From: Verrucomicrobiota bacterium
Lineage (GTDB): Bacteria; Verrucomicrobiota; Verrucomicrobiia; Limisphaerales; SIBE01
Assembly (NCBI GenBank): GCA_016871535.1
Contig: VHCZ01000006.1
Location: 1-63,413, forward strand
Length of the DNA: 63,413 nucleotides
Direction of reading: 5' to 3'
A program made the translations under genes and the position numbers. Of this stretch, positions 450 to 59,460 are shown in pieces. The notes beneath the pieces are model-generated. The model searched no databases, was not told the origin of the DNA, and saw nothing but the letters and a program-made list of their open reading frames with translations. Position 1 is the first letter of the stretch. Every line of letters starts with the position of its first letter.

Positions 450-2429
450 TCATCGCGCGAAAGCCGGCCCCGCGCGGAAGTTGCCCACCGCCTCGCTGGT
501 CCGCAGAGCGCGGTTGTAGATGCGCAGCGACCCAACCGCAGGGGCGATCTTCGCCGCGGCGGCGCCGGTTGGGGTGCGCAGGTTCGGACTAAACCTGCCC
601 CAGCCAAACTGCCGCTCCTCGCCGCCATCACAGAGCACGCCGTTGACGACGAACGTAATGATCTTCGGTCCGCCGTCCACAGTGATGACCCCATGTTGCA
701 GCTTGGCTGCCTCAAGCATGCCACGGTCACTTTCCCAACCACATTCCTGCCGGCCATCATTCAGGGTGATACGGATCGTGCCGGAAGCCGTGCTGGAGAT
801 GAGGAAGCCCTTGCCTGTCTCGTCACGACTGTCAAGCAACCGGGTCTCCGCCGCCACCGAATCGAGCCTGACCCACAGCTCAACGCTGAATCCCGCCCGC
901 AAATCTTTGCCGCGTTGATCTTCAGATTTGGCATCGCGTTGATGGAAATCCGGGAGCCGCGGCATCGGCACCTGCGTCGGCATTGGCCCTTCCAGGTTCA
1001 GCAACAGTCCATTCGCGGCCACTCGCCGATTGTCCCACTGGTTGAACAGGCCTTCGATCAGCGCTTCCGAGATGACGTGGACTCGCCCGATCGTCTTCTG
1101 AGTTTCTGTGACGTAGAACTTGCCACCGTCCTCAACCAGGTCAGGGTAGCTCATCCGGATGAACGGGTCGTCGTCGTAAAGCAGGATTTCCGGCTGCGAC
1201 CATTCCATTTTCAAGCCTTGAGCGGTTTGAACTTCGCGGCCCGCCATCAGCCAGGCGGGATTGCGATCGTCATAAGGACTGCGCCCGGCCTTGCCGGCTG
1301 CGCCCAGTTCGCCGATGAATCGGCCGCCGTGATTGTGGAACCAGTAGAGGAACTGCCCGTTCCCGCAGTTCCACACGAAGTTGGCGGCGCGCGGATGTTT
1401 CACGCGCCGCCCGCCTGGCGAGTGAGTCTTGTAAGCGGGCGTCGTCCACGTATGACCGCCATCTCGGCTGTAAGCGCTGGCTGGCCAGCCGTCAATCGTG
1501 CGATAGACACAGTAGAGCGACCCATCACTGAGCTTCACGATGCTTTGCTCCTCGGCGACGCGCCCGCCACCCGGCGGGGTGCGCAGGCCGATGTCTCCAT
1601 CGGGCAACGTCTCGAACGTGATCTTGTTCGGGTCGCGTTCGGTGAGGAGGTTCCGGCTCTTGAGAAACGCGCCCTCCGACTGCGCGAAAAACCCGGCGCC
1701 CATGGCGCAAACCTTGTGGATCACCAGGATTGCGGCGTCGCCGAGCAGGAGCGGCCGGCCCACGTTCCAAAAGAAACGCAGCTTGCCGCCATAGACGTTG
1801 TGGCGGTCGCACTCGAATTCACGCACCGGCACCGCATAACGCTGCGCGGACCAGGTGCGTCCGTGGTCATCGCTGTATTTGAAGACATAGTGACCGAGCG
1901 AATCGACGCGTTTAAAGACGCCCTGGTCTTCGCGCTTCACCTCGCGCACACCGTCCGTGTTGTGATTATAGAAGGCGTAGATGCGGCCGAACGGAACCTT
2001 GAGCAGGACCGCGTAACTGGCCTCCGGACCGTTTGCCGGTTCGATCGGCACGATGCTCTCCCAGGTGCGGCCCCGGTCCGTGCTGCGCATCGAGACGACG
2101 TGCTGCCCGGCCGCGCCCTCCACGCCTTTGCCGGTGGTCATCACGCACAACCAGGCCCCGTCGTCGGTTTTCACGATGTAAGGTTGGTCCGCGTAACCTT
2201 CGCTGGGAATGACCCAGCCGTTGTGGATGTGTCGCGGGTCGGGAATAGTGGGTGCGGCGTGCGTTGCAGCCGAACGACAACAGGCGATCCCGATGAGCAG
2301 GAGAAACGTCAGGGACGCAGTCTTGACACTTGGCGCGGCGAAGCCGAAGGCGCCAGCCGGCCAGGGAACGGCAAGAATGGTCCGCGTTGGATTCATCAGA
2401 GGCGATGACCCTGACAAACTTTGAGCCAC
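450..2429 (-). CDS. Secreted sialidase/BNR-repeat protein with C-terminal LamG-like domain
   Basis: Predicted exported exo-sialidase-type six-blade propeller. A hydrophobic segment near residues 38-50 followed by AATHAA suggests a signal peptide; the ATG at residue 12 (nt 2396) is an equally good start. Three Asp-box motifs are visible: STDRGRTW (116-123), SDDHGRTW (186-193) and SRDGGHTW (about 320). The last ~150 residues (LWVRLDSVAAETRLLDS onward) look like a concanavalin/LamG beta-sandwich, possibly glycan binding. Family knowledge suggests glycan trimming outside the cell; actual sialidase activity is unproven because the propeller is widely reused. It is a stand-alone gene. Confidence 0.8.
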   Translation of the reverse strand: MAQSLSGSSPLMNPTRTILAVPWPAGAFGFAAPSVKTASLTFLLLIGIACCRSAATHAAPTIPDPRHIHNGWVIPSEGYADQPYIVKTDDGAWLCVMTTGKGVEGAAGQHVVSMRSTDRGRTWESIVPIEPANGPEASYAVLLKVPFGRIYAFYNHNTDGVREVKREDQGVFKRVDSLGHYVFKYSDDHGRTWSAQRYAVPVREFECDRHNVYGGKLRFFWNVGRPLLLGDAAILVIHKVCAMGAGFFAQSEGAFLKSRNLLTERDPNKITFETLPDGDIGLRTPPGGGRVAEEQSIVKLSDGSLYCVYRTIDGWPASAYSRDGGHTWTTPAYKTHSPGGRRVKHPRAANFVWNCGNGQFLYWFHNHGGRFIGELGAAGKAGRSPYDDRNPAWLMAGREVQTAQGLKMEWSQPEILLYDDDPFIRMSYPDLVEDGGKFYVTETQKTIGRVHVISEALIEGLFNQWDNRRVAANGLLLNLEGPMPTQVPMPRLPDFHQRDAKSEDQRGKDLRAGFSVELWVRLDSVAAETRLLDSRDETGKGFLISSTASGTIRITLNDGRQECGWESDRGMLEAAKLQHGVITVDGGPKIITFVVNGVLCDGGEERQFGWGRFSPNLRTPTGAAAAKIAPAVGSLRIYNRALRTSEAVGNFRAGPAFAR

Positions 2430-2524
2430 GGTTCAAGAAATCGAGTCACGGCGGCGGAAGCGGCGGAAGGTGGCGGAGGCAAATTCTGTTCGCACGGCAA
2501 TACGCGAGTTGGTAGGCTTCCCAC

Positions 2525-2755
2525 ATGAGTTACCTGACGCTGGAAGTTCAGATTGACCACGGCAGAGTTTTGCCCAAGGAACCGGGGAAGCTTCCTGAAA
2601 CTGGCAGTGGTTTATTGACAATCCTTGAGTCGGCTCCTACGGAAACGTCGTCGATGACGCCTTTGGAGGCGTTCAGAGAGCTTCAGCGCCAACTGCAACT
2701 CACGCCAGAAAAGGCACAAGTTTGGAAGGCGACCATTCGTGAAGCTCGCCGCTGA
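2525..2755 (+). CDS. Small putative antitoxin upstream of PIN toxin
   Basis: A 76-residue protein. MSYLTLEVQIDHGRV resembles the N-terminal strand of short antitoxins that bind PIN toxins, and residues 44-76 are a charged helix (FRELQRQLQLTPEKAQVW). It lies immediately upstream of the PIN-domain gene (10 bp gap to the preferred toxin start), the normal order of a VapBC-type module. The assignment rests mainly on this linkage, not on a strong motif. Confidence 0.55.
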   Translation: MSYLTLEVQIDHGRVLPKEPGKLPETGSGLLTILESAPTETSSMTPLEAFRELQRQLQLTPEKAQVWKATIREARR

Positions 2756-2765
2756 GACGCGGTTC

Positions 2766-3137
2766 ATGGTCCATCTGGATTCGAATTATCTCGTGGATGC
2801 CCTGGTGCCCGGTTCGTCGGCGGAGGCCATGATCTTGAGCTGGCTTGCGGCAAGAGAAACTCTGGCAATGAGCGCCGTTGCTTGGGGAGAATTCCTTTTC
2901 GGGCCTCTCTCTTCATCCGCCGAGTCAGCCGCGCGACAGACCGTGACGACAATTGAATCCCTTCAGCAGGGAGATGGAGAACAGGCCGCAAAGCTATTCA
3001 ACCAGACCGGACGTCGTTCCAGAATTTTTCAGGATTGTATGATCGCCGCCGCTGCAATTCGTTGCCGAGCGAGGCTGGCCACTTTGAATACGGCTGATTT
3101 TGTGCCCTTTGTCCCGTACGGCTTGACCATCGCCTGA
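2766..3137 (+). CDS. PIN-domain ribonuclease, VapC-like toxin
   Basis: A 123-residue PIN fold. Acidic residues sit at expected places: the first Asp in MVHLDSNYLVD, a Glu in SAVAWGEFLFG, an Asp in FQDCMIAAAAI, and an Asp in LNTADFVPF. PIN toxins cleave RNA with Mg2+ held by this cluster. I chose the ATG at 2766, where the conserved first strand begins; a longer frame from 2739 would overlap the antitoxin by 17 bp. All acidic positions are present, so it looks functional. Confidence 0.8.
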   Translation: MVHLDSNYLVDALVPGSSAEAMILSWLAARETLAMSAVAWGEFLFGPLSSSAESAARQTVTTIESLQQGDGEQAAKLFNQTGRRSRIFQDCMIAAAAIRCRARLATLNTADFVPFVPYGLTIA

Positions 3138-3281
3138 GCGTCTTTCTGTGTCGTAAAGCCGAGCATCGAGGCTTTCAGCGCTACGGTGCCCAGGACTCCT
3201 TTACCCCACTACTCCAACACCCTGTACGGTTCCCACTCCTGCGAGCTTGTCATCTCGAACCGCTTTCCCGATTCTCCGCGC

Positions 3282-6619: not shown

Positions 6620-6723
6620 CCCTGAACCCGGTAGGGCGAGCCTGTCCCCAGCGAGCCGAGTCGGACGTGTTCCACGCACGTCGAGCGGCTCGCCGGGACG
6701 GACTCGCCCTACCAGGTTCAGGG
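6620..6723 (+). repeat. Dispersed palindromic repeat, family B copy
   Basis: Core begins GGTAGGGCGAGCCTGTCC and ends GGGACGGACTCGCCCTACC, so the two ends are inverted repeats of each other. CCTGAACC and GGTTCAGG extend the palindrome on both sides. This is the best-preserved copy in the window. Confidence 0.9.
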
Positions 6724-47105: not shown

Positions 47106-47436
47106 GATCGTTTCGGTTTCCCATGAACCGCTGGGTAGGGCGAGCCTGTCCCCAGCGAGCCGGTCCGGACGTGTTCCAGGCGTGTCGAGCGGCTCGCCGA
47201 GACGGCCTCGCCCTACCATCGACGGGTTCAAGGGCCGAGTGCATGGTTCCGAGACCAAGGCAGCTTCCCATGAACCAACCCACCCCTTCGCCCCTCCCGG
47301 GAGGGGAACTGAGCCATGCGACGCCGGACGGAGATACCTTCCCGGGTCCGGCGAGCCTGTCCGCAGCGAGCCGTGTCGGACGTGTTCCACGCGCGTCGAG
47401 CGGCTCGCCGGGACGGACTCGCCCTACCCGCCTGCT
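47106..47436. repeat. Two family B copies and a CCCACCCC module between transporter genes
   Basis: A family B copy at 47134-47217 is followed by an inverted CATGGTTCCGAGACCAAGG leader, an AACCCACCCCTTCGCCCC arm (47277-47308), and a second family B copy lacking its left end at 47345-47429. The permease ATG begins 7 bp after the latter. Confidence 0.88.
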
Positions 47437-49705: not shown

Positions 49706-49856
49706 CGGGTTCATGGGAAGTTCGCTAGGTTTCAGAATCATGCACACGGCCCATGAACCCGGCAGGGCGAGTCCGTCCCGGCGAGCCGCTCGACGTGCGT
49801 GGAACACGTCCGACTCGGCTCGCTGGGGACAGGCTCGCCCTACCGTCTGGTTCATG
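49706..49856 (-). repeat. Family B module with leader
   Basis: The leader CCGGGTTCATGGGAAG...CCCATGAACCCGG is itself palindromic and runs into the GGCAGGGCGAGTCC...GGCTCGCCCTACC core (49761-49844). The 3' flank TCTGGTTCATG supplies the ATG of the next gene. Confidence 0.9.
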
Positions 49857-53987: not shown

Positions 53988-55091
53988 TCAGCTCGGCACG
54001 ATCACGCTCTTGGCGGATTCCCAGCGGGCGGTCGTGGCCAGGGCTTCGTTCGCTTGATCCAAGTCGAAGCGATGACTGACCATGGTGTGGAAGGGGAATT
54101 CCGTCTGGTGCGTCCGGAGAAAATCAATCGCGACCTTCAGGTGACGCGGTTCGCTCGACCACGATCCGAAAACCTGGAGTTGTTTGCGCGTGATGACCTG
54201 CGGGTTGAAGACCACGGTCCCCGCGTCGCAATAATGGCCCAGGACGAGATATTTGCCCCCGTCGCGGCACATTTCCATGCCTTCAGGCACGGCTGACGGG
54301 ATTCCAACGCATTCCAGGACGGCGTCCGCGCCGTGGCCGCCGGTGAGGTCGTGGACCGCCGCGATTCGCTGTTTTGGATCGGACACGTCGGACAGATCGA
54401 TGACGTGATCCGCGCCGAAGCGCCGCGCGGTTTCGAGCCGATGTTTGGGGCCTCCGATCACGATCACTTTCGCCGCCCCCGCGCTCCGCGCCACCGCCAG
54501 TGCGGCAATGCCCACCGGTCCGGCGCCCTGAACAACCACCGTGTCACGCCACGCCACACCGGTGCGTTCGATCCCATGAATGGCTGTGATCAACGCGCAA
54601 CCGGCGCCGATGAGCGATTCGGTGAGCAGATCGTCCGGGAGCTTGAAGATCGTCGTGCGCGGCCGGAGATAGTGAAATTCAGCGTAACCGCCGAGAAAAT
54701 GCGGCGGTTCGTCGCAGCGATAACCGATGCCATACGCGCGCCGCTGGGAGCACTTCGTCGGCTGCCGGATCTCGGTGCAGTGGTAGCATTGCCCGCAGGA
54801 CGTCGCGGAGTTCCACGTCACGCGATCACCGGCGCGCAACGGCTGTCCGGTCCAGTCGCGGCTCAATCCCTCGCCGAGTTGCTCGATGCGCCCGACGGTT
54901 TCGTGGCCCATGATGACGGGCAGCGCGATCGGGAGCTGGCCTTTCCAGAGGTGGACATCCGTGCCGCAAATGCCGGCCATCTCTGTGCGGACGAGCGCGG
55001 CGCCGGGATCAATTTTCTCCGGGAGCGGGAACGATCTCAATTGCAGGGGCGCGTCAAACTTTTCAAGAACCGAGGCGCGGGCGTTTCGCAT
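53988..55091 (-). CDS. Zinc-dependent alcohol dehydrogenase-like protein (MDR family)
   Basis: A 367-residue medium-chain dehydrogenase. AGICGTDVHLWKG and VIMGHETVGRIEQLGEG hold catalytic zinc ligands, CGQCYHCTEIRQPTKC the four structural-zinc cysteines, and VVQGAGPVGIAALAVARSAG the NAD(P) Rossmann loop. It oxidises a polyol or alcohol; threonine- or sorbitol-dehydrogenase-like subgroups are possible. Divergent from the cassette region that starts upstream of it. Confidence 0.92.
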   Translation of the reverse strand: MRNARASVLEKFDAPLQLRSFPLPEKIDPGAALVRTEMAGICGTDVHLWKGQLPIALPVIMGHETVGRIEQLGEGLSRDWTGQPLRAGDRVTWNSATSCGQCYHCTEIRQPTKCSQRRAYGIGYRCDEPPHFLGGYAEFHYLRPRTTIFKLPDDLLTESLIGAGCALITAIHGIERTGVAWRDTVVVQGAGPVGIAALAVARSAGAAKVIVIGGPKHRLETARRFGADHVIDLSDVSDPKQRIAAVHDLTGGHGADAVLECVGIPSAVPEGMEMCRDGGKYLVLGHYCDAGTVVFNPQVITRKQLQVFGSWSSEPRHLKVAIDFLRTHQTEFPFHTMVSHRFDLDQANEALATTARWESAKSVIVPS

Positions 55092-55139
55092 AAAATGTGG
55101 CTCGAATAGGAGTCAACGGAACTAGAAGCTTGGGCCGCG

Positions 55140-55416
55140 CCGGGACTTTTTCAAGGTATTCCCTTCAGTGAAGGTGAGGGGAGCGTCCTCCCGCGCCTTC
55201 GCGACGACGCAGCCGCTCCGGCGGCGCAGGCTGCTCCGCTGATTGCTTGGGGAATCGCGGTCGCTGTTGACTACTTTATCCCTCCTTGGGGATCCTGGAT
55301 TATTCCCGGTTTTCACGGAGTTCTATTAGTAATCACTGTTGTGATCATGATCCGAGATGTGCGCTGCCTGAGGGGGCTCAGAGCATTACCAAGCCGAACC
55401 AACGGATCGAGCCAAT
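55140..55416 (+). CDS. Start-less small membrane ORF ending within attC site 1
   Basis: An open frame including AAPLIAWGIAVAVDYFIPPW, then GSWIIPGFHGVLLVITVVIMIRD, has one or two membrane segments and stops in TGA at 55416-55418 inside the first attC-like site. Integron cassette ORFs commonly stop in their attC. No convincing ATG exists upstream, so it is a partial or unusual-start ORF. Confidence 0.35.
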
Positions 55417-55498
55417 GACGAGGAGCGCGATGACGTTGCTGTTCCAATTCGGATCTGCCTGCCGCGCTCCTCGTCATGGCTCATCCTGATCGTTCGGC
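55394..55498 (+). mobile_element. attC-like recombination site 1
   Basis: Ends GCCGAAC and GTTCGGC form the R''/R' boxes. Inner arms at 55410-55430 and 55463-55482 (GAGCCAATGACGAGG and CCTCGTCATGGCTC) pair along 20 bp except for one extra A in the left arm, as expected for an extrahelical base. Size 105 bp. Confidence 0.75.
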
Positions 55499-55509
55499 GG
55501 CATTCACGT

Positions 55510-56030
55510 ATGCGTATCCGTCCTTATTTTTCAAACCCTGCTGAGTTTCACGCATACGAGCCAGAGGTCATCGAGATTGCGCGTCGGCTTCGTAGCGGCA
55601 TTCAAGGTGTGGAACCAGCGTTACAGGTTGAGCACGTTGGCAGCACCTCCGTTCCAGGTTGCGGTGGGAAAGGCATCATCGATCTGGCCGTTCTCTATCC
55701 GGAAGGGTTGCTTGCCCGCGCGAGGGTGGTTCTCGATGAACTTGGATTTCAGAAACAGGGCGGGCCGGAGCCATTCCCCGAGGACCGGCCGATGCGCGTC
55801 GGATGTGTTGAGGACGATGGCCGTTTGTATCGCATTCACGCCCACGTCATCGCGCTGGGTTCGGAGGAGCATGACGAGTTGGCGTGGTTCCGAGAAGCGC
55901 TCCGTCGCGATTCAACTTTAAAGCAGAGCTATGAGGAGCGGAAGCGCGCGATTCTCGCGGCGGGGATTCAGGATGAGCTCGAATACTGCAAGGCGAAGGG
56001 AGCGTTCGTCACCGATGCGCTTAAGAGCGT
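55510..56030 (+). CDS. GrpB/UPF0157-family protein
   Basis: About 174 genuine residues: EPEVIEIARRLRSGIQG, then VEHVGSTSVPGCGGKGIIDL (the family's nucleotidyltransferase-like signature), RIHAHVIALGSEEHDELAWF, and CKAKGAFVTDALK. GrpB proteins belong to the Pol-beta nucleotidyltransferase superfamily; function unclear. The frame stays open to 56394 only because an inverted-repeat element entered at the natural stop, replacing it with element-coded residues. It is the cargo of an attC cassette between sites 1 and 2. Confidence 0.85.
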
Positions 56031-56300
56031 GTCCGAAAATTGCGCGGGGTCCTGCGGCGAGGGATTTTGGCTGTGGCCAAGGCGGCGAGGTCCGAGCATC
56101 CCCAACGCGGGCTGTAAGGACCGAGCCAACGCAGGCCACGGACAAAAGACCCGCCGCCCGGAGGGTTTTCGCGCCAAAGGCCGCCTGGCTTCGTTGCTCC
56201 TCAGTCGAAGATCCAGGGAGGATATTCTCCTTCGTCGCGCCTCGCCATCCGGCCTTTGGCGCGAAAACAGGACCCCGCGGAATTTTCGGACACGCTCTAA
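56021..56300. mobile_element. MITE-like inverted-repeat element (family D copy 2)
   Basis: 31-bp terminal inverted repeats (30 matches): AGAGCGTGTCCGAAAATT at the left and its complement at the right, each extended by GCGGGGTCCTG-like sequence. Inner arms with GCGCCAAAGGCC and GGCCTTTGGCGC. It sits exactly at the end of the GrpB gene. Confidence 0.85.
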
Positions 56301-56313
56301 GGAAAGACAACCT

Positions 56314-56409
56314 GCCGAACCAACCGCGGCACCGAATGGCGGCCCCGCGACGCGGTTCGGCCATTCGGAAGCCACGGAGGGCCGCCATCGGTGAGCCGAA
56401 TCCTTCGGC
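56314..56409 (+). mobile_element. attC-like recombination site 2
   Basis: Left box GCCGAAC; right box CTTCGGC (one change from GTTCGGC). Arms ACCGAATGGCGGCCC (56331-56345) and GGGCCGCCATCGGT (56379-56392) pair except for one extra A on the left, the same asymmetry as site 1. 96 bp. Confidence 0.7.
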
Positions 56410-56454
56410 AAATCGCCGTTGAACGCGCTGGGGTCATCGTTTAAGCTTTGCAGC

Positions 56455-56673
56455 ATGCAAAGTCAGGTTGATCTCAAACAGATGGCACTGTCCGAAAAGC
56501 TTCAACTTATGGAGGCACTTTGGGATGAACTGTGTAACCGGGAGGAGGAGATTCCCGTTCCGGATTGGCATAAGACGGTCCTCGATGAACGAGAGCGACA
56601 GGTCGCCGAAGGCAAGGCAACGTTCGTTGATTGGGAGACGGCCAAGCAGAGAATTCGGAAGCGGATTTCATGA
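56455..56673 (+). CDS. Addiction-module antitoxin (TIGR02574-like)
   Basis: A 72-residue protein from ATG 56455. MALSEKLQLMEALWDELCNR, then PDWHKTVLDERERQVAEGKA with TFVDWETAKQRIRKRIS, is the addiction-module component pattern (helix, W-H linker, ER-x-x-x-x-G, W-x-x-A/V-K). It is followed, with a 4-bp overlap (ATGA), by the toxin gene. Cargo of the second attC cassette. The open frame upstream to 56419 is not conserved. Confidence 0.85.
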   Translation: MQSQVDLKQMALSEKLQLMEALWDELCNREEEIPVPDWHKTVLDERERQVAEGKATFVDWETAKQRIRKRIS

Positions 56674-56963
56674 CGATCGAGATTCTGGACAAGGCTGAGA
56701 ATGATCTTGTTGCCGGATTTCACTTTTACGAGGAGCAAGAGATTGGTTTGGGGACGTATTTCCTGGAGAGTCTCTATTCGGATATTGAATCACTGAAACT
56801 GTACGCGGGGATTCATCGGCTGGCGTACCGAGATTTCCATCGCATGCTCTCGAAGCGGTTTCCATTCGCGATTTATTACAGGACGGCTGCGAGGATTGCT
56901 TACGTTCATGCCGTCGTTGACTGTAGGAAGAGTCCAGCATGGATCAGGGATCATTTGACGTGA
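56670..56963 (+). CDS. RelE/ParE-family toxin
   Basis: A 97-residue protein. MTIEILDKAENDLVAGFHFY, FLESLYSDIESLKLY and RRFPFAIYYR-like KRFPFAIYYRTAARIAYVHA show the ParE/RelE fold, ending VDCRKSPAWIRDHLT. ParE types poison gyrase and RelE types cut mRNA; the type here is undecided. Coupled to the preceding antitoxin. The stop lies 5 bp before attC site 3. Confidence 0.88.
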   Translation: MTIEILDKAENDLVAGFHFYEEQEIGLGTYFLESLYSDIESLKLYAGIHRLAYRDFHRMLSKRFPFAIYYRTAARIAYVHAVVDCRKSPAWIRDHLT

Positions 56964-56967
56964 ACTT

Positions 56968-57063
56968 GCCGAACCAGATCACTGGACCGAACGCGGGCGG
57001 GCCATGTCAGTTGACGATGCGGACGCGTTGGGCCGCCCGCGTCGCTCAGTTTTGTCGTTCGGT
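56968..57063 (+). mobile_element. attC-like recombination site 3
   Basis: Left box GCCGAAC, right box GTTCGGT. Arms CGAACGCGGGCGG and CCGCCCGCGTCG pair with one extra A in the left arm, flanked by ACTG/CAGT. 96 bp. Same architecture as sites 1 and 2. Confidence 0.72.
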
Positions 57064-57084
57064 GAAACCCAAGGACGTGAGCGC

Positions 57085-57402
57085 ATGAAGAGAAGCTTGG
57101 CGAGAACAGCCCTCATTGGTGGAAGCGTTGGCATTCCGCTATGGCTTCTGTCCTACTCGTGGCTTCCGTTTGCCTTGGCTGGGCGTGATGGGCAATTCGT
57201 GCTCCACGCGGTGGTTGTCGGCGAGGTGGGCGCCTTTGCGGCGGGAGCTCTCGGCGTTGGTTTGGGCTTTACGGCCAGGAAACGCTCCGCACCCGGGTCA
57301 CGCGAGCACCGGTTGGCCTCACGCAGCGTAACCGTGGCCTCGGTGGTACGAACGCTAGTCCTGATCCCGAATGTCCTGGGCCGTCTATTGCATGCTCAAT
57401 AA
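57085..57402 (+). CDS. Small membrane protein, putative cassette cargo
   Basis: About 105 residues from ATG 57085 (MKRSLARTALIGGSVGIPLW) with two or three hydrophobic stretches (LWLLSYSWLPFALAG; LHAVVVGEVGAFAAGALGVG) and a basic C-terminus. A larger frame from 57004 starts inside attC site 3. No family recognised. It lies directly downstream of site 3, as a cassette gene would. Confidence 0.55.
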   Translation: MKRSLARTALIGGSVGIPLWLLSYSWLPFALAGRDGQFVLHAVVVGEVGAFAAGALGVGLGFTARKRSAPGSREHRLASRSVTVASVVRTLVLIPNVLGRLLHAQ

Positions 57403-57441
57403 CCATGGCTCCCATCTTCTCCATCTTCTCTGCATTCACCG

Positions 57442-57499
57442 GTTGAACCAAGCCGCGTAAAAGCTTCGCTCACGCGGCAGGCCGCGTCGAAGGTTCGGA
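57442..57499 (+). mobile_element. Possible degenerate attC-like site 4
   Basis: GTTGAAC and GTTCGGA frame a GCCGCGT/ACGCGGC 7-bp stem; GAACC pairs with GGTTC. 58 bp, much simpler than sites 1-3. It could instead be an ordinary hairpin. Confidence 0.3.
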
Positions 57500-57567
57500 G
57501 GGCGGTTCTCAACGGGAGGGTTTCCTTGAGGAAAGATCGGTGCTTCGTCTCGAGCGCGATTGCGCAA

Positions 57568-59460
57568 TTATTCAAAGTCCTCGTTCAGCGAACGGAGAAA
57601 TGCGGACAGCGGGGCCTGGGCTTCCTTGGTGAGAAGGACTTTGGCCATTTCCGGGTCGCCATTGCGAATCCTCTGTTCCCGCGCCAGGTCGGAAGTGAAG
57701 CGGTAGAAAAACACGACCGCTTCGATGGTCGAGGATTGGCCCGTGTGCAGGTAGGGCGCCGAGTGGCCCAGATCGCGCAAGCCGGGCGTCTTGAAGAGCG
57801 CAATCGTTTTAGGCAAGAGAGTCTCTGCGGTATTCGCCCCCAACGACGCCGAGAGCATCGTTTGGAGGGCGGCTTGCGGCGCGGGAAAATCCGGATTGGC
57901 GTACACGTTCCACAGACCGAGATCGACATCGCCAGGCGCCTTTTTGGCCGGCGCGGCGTTGAATCGGCCTGTAGCGTTCGGATGCCGGGCCGTGGGCGGC
58001 AGGAAATCATCCGGAGCGGCGAGGCGCTCGGCGAGGCCAGGGACCCGGAGTTGCACGAACGCCCCCTCGCCGTGGACCGAGTCGAACTCCCACTGCGTCG
58101 CGCCCGTGTTGTGAAAACTGAAATCCGTGAAGTGCGGCGCGGCGTGGCACGCGAGGCAATTTCCCATTCTCCCCGGCGGCGAGGAATCGTCGCCAGGCTC
58201 GGCGAAAAAGATTTTGAGCCCTTCCAATTCCGCCGGGCCAAAAGCGAACTTCTGAGCGTGCGTCGTGAAGGAGCCGTCGTCCGCGGTGACAAACACAGGC
58301 GATTTCAGATTGGCCACCAGTGCCCGCAAGCGGCGGCTGTACGATTTGTCGTCCTCGCCCGCGGCGGGGCGGCGGGGAAAGGAATTCTTTTTGAGGAAGA
58401 CGTCGTAGGGGCTGGCGTCGTACTCCCCGGCTTCGTTCGTCGAGAACGTGAGCGACTTGAGGTAGGCGTTGAGGATTTTCGCCACCGCGTCGAGAACTTC
58501 GTCATCGGCAGCTTTGGACCCATCGATCCTGAACGCTTCCGGCAATCGGAACTCGGCGGGAATGGCGGGATCGAGGCCGGCCAGAATCGTTCGGTAAGCG
58601 CCGCCCGTTTTGTGGCCGAGCGCGCTCTGGCCGTTGTCCTCGCGGATGACTTTGGCGATGTGCCGGACGGCCAGCGCGCGTTCCGCAGGCAGCCAGCCGA
58701 AGTTGCGGCCGGTCAAGGTAGCTTTGATCAGAGCTTCGCCAGTCGGGAATTCGCCGTCGAAGTGCAGGAAGAATGCTCCGCGCCGGGGGATGGAGGCGTT
58801 GGCGAGAGCGGGCGAGTTGCGCGCCGTGAACCGACGGCCATCTCCGCGCTCCGGAATCGGCGAACGAATTGCGAAATCCGCGTATGCGCGCGTGCCCAGA
58901 CCGCCGGCCTTGTGCTCGTCCACGAGGTGACAGGCGCGGCAATTCATGGACTGACCGGCGAACGCGCCCGGCACGGTGGTGTTGACGGTGCGGGTCGCGT
59001 CGAGAACGGGGTCGCCGCTGGACAGCGAAGCGTTCACGTCTCCGCCCGAATGTGCGTAAAAGTATTGCGCGAAGCGAGTCTCCAGAAAGAAGCGCCGGCC
59101 AATCGCGACTTCGGGCGGCTCAAGCTTTGTGGTTGCCGGTCCGGCGGAAAAAGCGCGAAAGAACAGGCGAGGGGAGGTCAACGGAATGGCGAAGGCCGTT
59201 CGGCCGCTGGCGTCGGCGGTCTGGGCAGGCCAGGTGGTCCATTTCAGAAAGTCCTCCGTGGATGCGATGCCATAAGCCGCGCCGCTCGTTCCCGACACCA
59301 CGAGCTGAGCGCTGTTGCTGGAAGTGACAAGAATCGCAAGCCCCGGCGGCCGGCGCGAAACCGTGCCGGGCTGAACGGAGTCGGCCGTGAGCAGCGCCCC
59401 ATGAAAATCCAACGACAAACCCACCGCCAGAAAACCGCGTATAATCCTCAGCGCGACGCA
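57568..59460 (-). CDS. Di-haem cytochrome c peroxidase/MauG-like protein
   Basis: Exported protein of ~630 residues. FLAVGLSLDF-HGALLTADS is a possible signal; an ASTEDFLKWTTW stretch precedes the catalytic part. Two haem sites: MNCRACHLVDEH and GNCLACHAAPHFTDFSFHNT; TPGLRDLGHSAPYLHTGQ near the C-terminus is the CcpA/MauG signature with a distal ligand. RNSPALANASIPRRGAFFLH is also conserved. The open frame extends to 59733, but that portion is repeat DNA (59480-59600), so the true start is unclear and may be non-ATG. Confidence 0.8.
   Translation of the reverse strand, partial: CVALRIIRGFLAVGLSLDFHGALLTADSVQPGTVSRRPPGLAILVTSSNSAQLVVSGTSGAAYGIASTEDFLKWTTWPAQTADASGRTAFAIPLTSPRLFFRAFSAGPATTKLEPPEVAIGRRFFLETRFAQYFYAHSGGDVNASLSSGDPVLDATRTVNTTVPGAFAGQSMNCRACHLVDEHKAGGLGTRAYADFAIRSPIPERGDGRRFTARNSPALANASIPRRGAFFLHFDGEFPTGEALIKATLTGRNFGWLPAERALAVRHIAKVIREDNGQSALGHKTGGAYRTILAGLDPAIPAEFRLPEAFRIDGSKAADDEVLDAVAKILNAYLKSLTFSTNEAGEYDASPYDVFLKKNSFPRRPAAGEDDKSYSRRLRALVANLKSPVFVTADDGSFTTHAQKFAFGPAELEGLKIFFAEPGDDSSPPGRMGNCLACHAAPHFTDFSFHNTGATQWEFDSVHGEGAFVQLRVPGLAERLAAPDDFLPPTARHPNATGRFNAAPAKKAPGDVDLGLWNVYANPDFPAPQAALQTMLSASLGANTAETLLPKTIALFKTPGLRDLGHSAPYLHTGQSSTIEAVVFFYRFTSDLAREQRIRNGDPEMAKVLLTKEAQAPLSAFLRSLNEDFE

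What the first reader, a model, noticed from the sequence alone, without database searches (positions are those of the whole stretch)
55394..57063. Integrase-less array of attC-like sites carrying GrpB and toxin-antitoxin cassettes
Seen: three ~96-105 bp imperfect palindromes with GCCGAAC...GTTCGGC-type boxes; each pairs with exactly one extra A in the left arm, mirroring the extrahelical base of integron attC sites. Each follows a short plus-strand gene unit (small membrane ORF; GrpB; antitoxin+toxin). Known: integron cassettes are ORF plus attC, and TA pairs are frequent cargo. No integrase is in the window, so this would be a CALIN.
Basis: partly seen in the sequence, partly recalled or inferred. 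Interest (0 to 1): 0.85.

Follow-up and report, generated by a model that had tools for sequence, protein, structure and literature searches.

The report
Integrase-less integron cassette array (CALIN)
Three hairpin sites that integrons use to move genes sit in a row in a Verrucomicrobiota chromosome, carrying a GrpB-family gene and a toxin-antitoxin pair but no integrase beside them; this is a genuine example of a known kind of element.

Summary
The finding holds. A covariance model built from 15 attC sites on integrase-bearing contigs of eight other genomes was run on the 63-kb window. At E<=5 it gives exactly three hits: 55393-55498 (3.8e-9), 56314-56409 (2.6e-7), 56968-57063 (1.5e-10), all + strand. 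It also weakly recognises two attCs of a class 1 integron. Cassette edges are confirmed by comparison: the toxin-antitoxin unit recurs in two other genomes, with DNA homology starting within 3 bases of the predicted cut point and ending at, or 3 bases past, the next left box, between different attCs. No integron integrase matched on this contig, but one (422 bits) lies on another contig. Corrections: the first 'membrane ORF' has no start codon and abuts a dispersed repeat; a 273-bp MITE (41 copies listed) sits at the 3' end of the GrpB gene; site 2 reads CTTCGGC where the two relatives read GTTCGGC and folds poorly, so GrpB and toxin-antitoxin may now move only together. CALINs and Verrucomicrobiota integrons are in print: a well-supported new member of a known kind. 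Most novel reading: attC bodies exchanged independently of their genes.

The parts
55158..55231 (.). dispersed repeat of the genome that abuts the left end of the array
   Evidence: 86% (71-74 nt) and 98% (40 nt) matches on other contigs
55232..55392 (+). remnant of cassette 1: small membrane ORF without an ATG/GTG/TTG start, apparently 5'-truncated
   Evidence: frame 0 open, no start codon; no convincing homolog in the loci held
55393..55498 (+). attC site 1 (R'' GCCGAAC, R' GTTCGGC at 55492-55498); bottom-strand pfold 0.41
55493..56403 (+). cassette 2: from the TT of site 1 R' to the base before the TT of site 2; 911 bp with the MITE
   Evidence: inferred from attC anatomy; left edge supported by homology edges at 55496, 55497 and 55508
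55510..56023 (+). GrpB family gene (PF04229); the reading frame now runs through the MITE to 56394
56025..56297 (.). 273-bp MITE with 31-bp terminal inverted repeats, TAA on both sides, inserted at the 3' end of the GrpB gene
56314..56409 (+). attC site 2 (R'' GCCGAAC, R' CTTCGGC): GTT triplet altered; bottom-strand pfold 0.006
56404..57057 (+). cassette 3: toxin-antitoxin unit plus site 3, 654 bp
   Evidence: homology edges 56401/56404 and 56974/56977 in two other genomes
56455..56670 (+). antitoxin, PF09720 (Unstab_antitox)
56670..56963 (+). ParE-like toxin (97 aa); itself without a Pfam match, 11 of 20 aligned family members match PF05016 at E<=0.1 (best 4.3e-6)
56968..57063 (+). attC site 3 (R'' GCCGAAC, R' GTTCGGT); bottom-strand pfold 0.22; 89% identical to a site on contig C276 preceded by unrelated DNA
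57085..57402 (+). small membrane ORF starting 22 nt after the site 3 boundary; possible fourth cassette without attC
   Evidence: no attC after it up to 57700

Best explanation
This is a CALIN: a short row of integron gene cassettes left in a chromosome without a neighbouring integrase. Shown: three attC sites in one orientation, each after a gene unit, with cassette edges that recur in other genomes; no integron integrase match on the 63-kb contig; an intact-looking IntI elsewhere in the genome. Inferred: the bottom strand of each attC folds into a hairpin that an integron integrase would cut at the G/TT of the right box, so sites 1 and 3 could still recombine, with the C258 IntI acting in trans. 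Site 2 is probably impaired (C for G at the cut triplet, poor folding), so GrpB, the MITE and the toxin-antitoxin pair would leave together as one 1565-bp unit (55493-57057). The toxin-antitoxin pair would penalise loss of the array. The first ORF without a start beside a dispersed repeat suggests that the array was cut off from its integron by rearrangement rather than inserted here cassette by cassette.
For: Covariance model from relatives' attCs: three hits in the window, no others at E<=5. The 15 model sites lie on eight contigs that carry an IntI over the TIGR02249 cut-off; in all eight the sites lie on the 5' side of intI and point away from it. The model also hits two attCs next to cassette genes of a class 1 integron plasmid (19.1 and 17.0 bits, E 0.0064 and 0.021) and one Thiodictyon site (28.4 bits). 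Covariation on 67 distinct sites: 92.8% of cells paired against 76.3 +- 0.9 shuffled; inner helix 98.3%. Modularity: 122 pairs of attCs at >=75% identity, none with BLAST-detectable similarity upstream. Toxin-antitoxin homologs in G192 and G006 share DNA with the window essentially only between R' and R'' and read GTTCGGC at the left edge. 6 of 29 non-window toxin loci examined have an attC within about 110 nt downstream on the same strand. IntI on C258: 421.9 bits, cut-off 265; none on C6.
Against: Neither attI nor a cassette promoter was identified here. Site 2 lacks the conserved GTT. R1 found no attC by the three GrpB relatives of the order (G002, G015, G125), so GrpB is not always a recognisable cassette gene. 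The IntI on C258 has no attC hit on its 8.6-kb contig, so its link to these sites is inferred. Over the 67 sites the folded bottom strand is not favoured over the top (median pfold 0.018 against 0.027, mean dG difference 0.14). In the class 1 control a third cassette gene had no hit after it. Two of five covariation measures did not exceed shuffling clearly. The genome is a 460-contig draft. Recombination itself was not tested.
Confidence: 0.93

Rival explanations
1. The palindromes are ordinary dispersed palindromic repeats (REP- or MITE-like) that happen to follow genes.
For: The genome carries such repeats: a ~105-bp palindrome family (CATGAACC...GTTCATG) at window 6621, 47122, 49752 and in tandem on C258, and a MITE with 41 copies listed. 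Similar attC-like sites do recur in the genome, e.g. a site 89% identical to site 3 on C276.
Against: The model made from integrase-linked attCs hits the three sites but not those other repeats, neither in the window nor on C258; in the scan they were best fitted without a bulge or with one 13 pairs in, not 5. The sites vary in sequence with compensatory pairs, and the toxin-antitoxin unit has edges at two of them in other genomes.
Confidence: 0.03
2. The array was formed here by off-target insertion of cassettes by an IntI acting from elsewhere in the genome, not by separation from an integron.
For: An IntI exists on C258; attC sites occur on at least five other contigs of the genome (C67, C276, C320, C213, C61); this route is among those listed in PMC8618304 (passages read).
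Against: The leftmost ORF lacks a start and abuts a dispersed repeat, which fits truncation; a clean secondary-site insertion should begin with a whole cassette.
Confidence: 0.3
3. The array is part of a complete integron split by assembly.
For: Draft genome of 460 contigs; PMC9024848 (passages read) warns that drafts inflate CALIN counts.
Against: The array is internal to a 63-kb contig with 55 kb to its left and 6 kb to its right, and no TIGR02249 match on it.
Confidence: 0.03

Closest known systems
[quoted passage not shown] IntegronFinder 2.0, PMC9024848, passages read)
   Same: Three attCs, start-to-start spacing 921 and 654 bp, no integron integrase match on the contig
   Different: Short; one site with an altered cut triplet; a MITE inserted in one cassette
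Sedentary integrons of the same bacterial order (e.g. G052:C183 = L082, G049:C6 = L076, G002:C410 = L147)
   Same: Same attC anatomy (7-nt R boxes, spacer of about 9-10 nt, inner stem with an extra base); closest relatives of sites 1, 2 and 3 among 63 other sites are 89%, 73% and 89% identical
   Different: Those have an IntI beside the array (partial in L147); the model's sites mostly have TAAC/GTTA boxes instead of GAAC/GTTC
Class 1 integron cassettes (L150, plasmid NZ_CP146075.1)
   Same: Two sites recognised by the same model beside qacG2 and cupin cassette genes
   Different: Much lower scores (19.1 and 17.0 bits); IntI1 adjacent; resistance cargo
Toxin-antitoxin cassettes of integrons (PMC8618304, passages read)
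   Same: Two-ORF toxin-antitoxin cassette
   Different: PF09720 antitoxin with a ParE-like toxin that itself has no Pfam match

Membership tests
CALIN / integron cassette array | attC sites recognised by a covariance model of known attCs | tested here: met
   model from relatives' integrase-linked arrays; positive control
CALIN / integron cassette array | R boxes, unpaired spacer, L box with extrahelical base | tested here: met
CALIN / integron cassette array | GTT at the cut point (a CALIN needs two attCs by the default in PMC9024848) | tested here: met
   met in sites 1 and 3; not met in site 2, which has CTT
CALIN / integron cassette array | at least two attCs in one orientation, each after an ORF | tested here: met
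   the ORF before site 1 lacks a start codon
CALIN / integron cassette array | no integron integrase nearby | tested here: met
   no TIGR02249 match on the contig
CALIN / integron cassette array | cassette edges vary independently in relatives | tested here: met
CALIN / integron cassette array | hit by IntegronFinder's own attC model | not testable with these tools
   the model is not held; Rfam gave no attC family match
CALIN / integron cassette array | recombination by IntI | not testable with these tools
   needs an assay
Complete integron | intI beside the array | tested here: not met
Complete integron | attI and cassette promoter | not tested
   no model of attI for this lineage; only a candidate motif elsewhere

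The most novel reading that the evidence does not exclude
In this lineage attC bodies are exchanged independently of cassette genes at the R'' box. The toxin-antitoxin gene unit is 77-80% identical in DNA among the window, G192 and G006, up to and including TGAACTTGCCGAAC, yet beyond that box the three attCs are no more alike (58-65%) than a shuffled control (mean 54%, max 68%), while the window's site 3 is 89% identical to a site preceded by unrelated DNA in the same genome. That would point to a step that gives genes new attCs, bearing on the open question of how cassettes arise. Fast divergence of attCs, selected only for shape, is the plainer reading, and the case rests on three genomes; in a closer pair (G208/G102, gene DNA 88% alike) the attCs share their left arm, so there gene and attC seem to stay together.
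Probability: 0.2. Interest if true: 0.65.

Novelty: new member of a known kind. Interest (0 to 1): 0.38.

Why it matters
It documents a chromosomal CALIN in Verrucomicrobiota with cassette edges checked across genomes, and shows that all 7 same-family genomes examined have attC model hits (131 matches at E<=0.01, lower bounds). Such attC-rich relatives could be used to ask how cassettes acquire their attCs and whether one integrase serves scattered arrays in trans.

Tried and rejected
Exact box pattern GCCGAAC-N(60-85)-GTTCGGC in the genome: 6 matches per strand, none attC-like in the listing, against 15 for the reversed-pattern control; too strict. MAFFT alignment A2 of 13 relatives' sites misplaced right arms and was dropped; the model was built on A1, all 15 rows, one of which (L066:1553-1687) fits the structure poorly. 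Rfam over 54500-58500: one chance-level hit. PDB by sequence, toxin alone and as a 20-sequence profile: nothing relevant. PADLOC, three proteins: nothing. Synteny: the oxidoreductase left of the array is kept in 6 of 7 family genomes, but no other window ORF of >=120 codons in 40001-63413, apart from frames overlapping that gene, matched the fetched neighbourhoods, so no empty site could be read. The C276 recombinase (255 aa) near an attC is under the IntI cut-off.

Limits of counts. The genome-wide model searches scored 150 candidates per genome, so counts are lower bounds; one search missed site 1 that way. The BLAST scored 40 of 379 candidates: it listed the MITE copies but missed the 89% relative of site 3 on C276, so it says nothing about absence. 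One search scored at most 20 candidates in some genomes. One search used 64 of the 67 distinct sites (three left out when the list was typed: L116:2662-2754, L125:2036-2163, L135:559-661); 4 of its 122 pairs had under 250 bp upstream; the largest upstream identity, 0.65, slightly exceeds the random maximum, 0.63.

Full report
What was claimed. Three palindromes at 55394-57063 resemble integron attC sites and follow short gene units, without an integrase in the window.

Check of the observation. The sequence shows palindromes at 55393-55498, 56314-56409 and 56968-57063. All begin GCCGAAC. They end GTTCGGC, CTTCGGC and GTTCGGT. Inside the outer boxes lies a mostly unpaired spacer of about 9-10 nt, then a stem with one extra A in the left arm after five pairs. 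In DNA folding with the box pairs enforced, the bottom strands of sites 1, 3 and 2 have pfold 0.41, 0.22 and 0.006. The median of the 67 distinct sites's alignment, which includes these three, is 0.018 for the bottom and 0.027 for the top strand, so there is no general preference for the bottom strand.

Independent model. I fetched 20 contigs of relatives that carry matches over the cut-off of the integron integrase family TIGR02249 (33 of 97 genomes, this one included, had such a match). A structural scan found attC-like sites in several. Fifteen of them, on eight contigs (L066, L069, L075, L076, L077, L080, L081, L082) and none from the window or its genome, gave model R1 with 15 base pairs. 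On all eight contigs these sites lie on the 5' side of intI and point away from it, as in known integrons (positions compared by hand). Run on the whole 63,413-base window, both strands, R1 returned the three sites and nothing else up to E = 5. With filters off over 54900-57700 the next best was an opposite-strand echo of site 1 at 13.9 bits. As a positive control, R1 hit two attCs beside the qacG2 and cupin genes of a class 1 integron plasmid (19.1 and 17.0 bits), but none after a third cassette gene there (chlorite dismutase), and one site in a Thiodictyon plasmid (28.4 bits).

Structure under selection. On 84 matches, 67 distinct, aligned to R1, 92.8% of pair cells are standard against 76.3 +- 0.9 after shuffling, and 147 cells carry changes on both sides against 54.6 +- 5.0; the inner helix is 98.3% paired, the outer 86.2%. 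Two measures did not clearly exceed shuffling: pairs with a change on both sides (9 against 8.8) and further pair types (22 against 19.9, reached by 66 of 500). The alignment was fitted to the model, which favours the structure; sliding the partners by 1-3 columns gives 18.6-41.5%.

Cassettes as modules. Among 64 sites, 122 pairs are at least 75% identical. The 300 bp before them are near background (0.57-0.65 in the 118 pairs with enough upstream DNA; random pairs mean 0.60, max 0.63), with no BLAST match in any of the 122 pairs. Site 3 is 89% identical to a site on C276 of the same genome and site 1 89% to a site in G006, each preceded by unrelated DNA; site 2's closest is 73%. The toxin is found in 81 of 293 genomes of the order, this one included. 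Of 29 non-window toxin loci examined, 6 have an attC directly downstream in the same orientation (L155, L160, L163, L168, L178, L181); 23 do not. In L155 (G192, another family) and L168 (G006, same family; its toxin match covers residues 31-96 with one stop) the DNA homology to the window begins at 56401 and 56404 and ends at 56977 and 56974, that is, at the right box of one attC and at or just past the left box of the next. Both relatives read GTTCGGCAAATC at the left edge and the window CTTCGGCAAATC, so site 2 has probably lost its G. GrpB relatives are rare (4 of 293 genomes including this one). Their homology starts at 55496, 55497 and 55508, near the predicted edge, but R1 found no attC by them. 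By eye, G125 (L185) has what looks like half of an attC after the gene, and in G015 (L187) the gene is preceded by GTTCGCC.

The integrase. No match to TIGR02249 lies on contig C6, the window. C258:775-1710 scores 421.9 bits (cut-off 265) and by eye keeps the tyrosine recombinase residues and the IntI-specific insert (recalled motifs). It has an N-terminal extension, is 68% identical to an IntI of a same-genus genome (G002:C621) whose contig has an attC upstream of it, and has no attC hit on its own contig. attC matches occur on other contigs of the genome: C67 (2), C276 (1), C320 (2, opposite strands), C213 (2), C61 (3, one partial), and weaker ones on C26, C66 and C48.

The ends and the MITE. 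The leftmost ORF has no start codon, and the DNA to its left up to 55231 is a dispersed repeat. After site 3, a 105-aa membrane ORF starts 22 nt from the boundary but has no attC after it up to 57700. The 273-bp element at 56025-56297 has inverted ends and 40 other near-full matches at 97-100% identity in a capped list; 7 of 8 copies examined have TAA on both sides.

Kind and novelty. CALINs are described in PMC9024848 and their possible origins in PMC8618304, which also lists Verrucomicrobiota among phyla with integrons and toxin-antitoxin systems among common cassette functions (passages read). attC anatomy, the 57-141 bp length range and the three conserved cut-site nucleotides are in PMC5371416; PMC8352920 discusses attC similarity within taxa and cassette genesis (passages read). 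A search for integron with Pedosphaer and attC found no paper; CALIN with integron, Verrucomicrobi and attC found three, of which I read passages of one. The other searches were seen as listings except where a paper is named above.

Verdict. A genuine CALIN, a new member of a known kind.

Noticed in passing
56025-56297 and 40 other places listed in the genome (capped): A 273-bp MITE with 31-bp inverted ends, 97-100% identical copies, TAA on both sides in 7 of 8 copies examined; looks recently active. Its transposase was not sought.
   Followed up: partly
L018 (G000:C258) 1-1858; L072 (G002:C621) 932-3193: In both genomes an IntI with an N-terminal extension is followed by a 3' remnant of a different, canonical IntI (45 and about 100 residues; 84-86% identical to the IntI of G002:C410), as if it had replaced or invaded it.
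   Followed up: partly
L019 (G000:C276) near 991, - strand; L187 (G015:C83) near 1476; weaker L123 (G007:C113) near 579: An 18-nt motif GATACACTGCT(A/C)CACGTT occurs exactly in two of 187 loci plus the window searched (L084 repeats L019's stretch), ending in the GTT just before a cassette-like gene start, before different genes; a third copy has 2 mismatches. Candidate attI or promoter-like insertion point; not in the window.
   Followed up: partly
window 6621-6722, 47122-47232, 49752-49856; L018 5107-5916: A dispersed ~105-bp palindromic repeat (CATGAACC...GTTCATG, core GGTAGGGCGAG), also in tandem at about 141-bp spacing on C258; resembles attC in length only and is not hit by the model.
   Followed up: partly
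L147 (G002:C410), L148 (G001:C358), G005:C503, G006:C298: Longer attC arrays in same-family genomes; 131 model matches in 7 genomes (lower bound).
   Followed up: partly
L185 (G125:C374), just after the GrpB gene: GTTTAACAAGCGCGCTGCAGCG after a GrpB homolog: looks like the left half of an attC without its right half.
   Followed up: no
55510-56394: The GrpB reading frame now runs through the MITE into site 2, giving a predicted 294-aa ORF.
   Followed up: no
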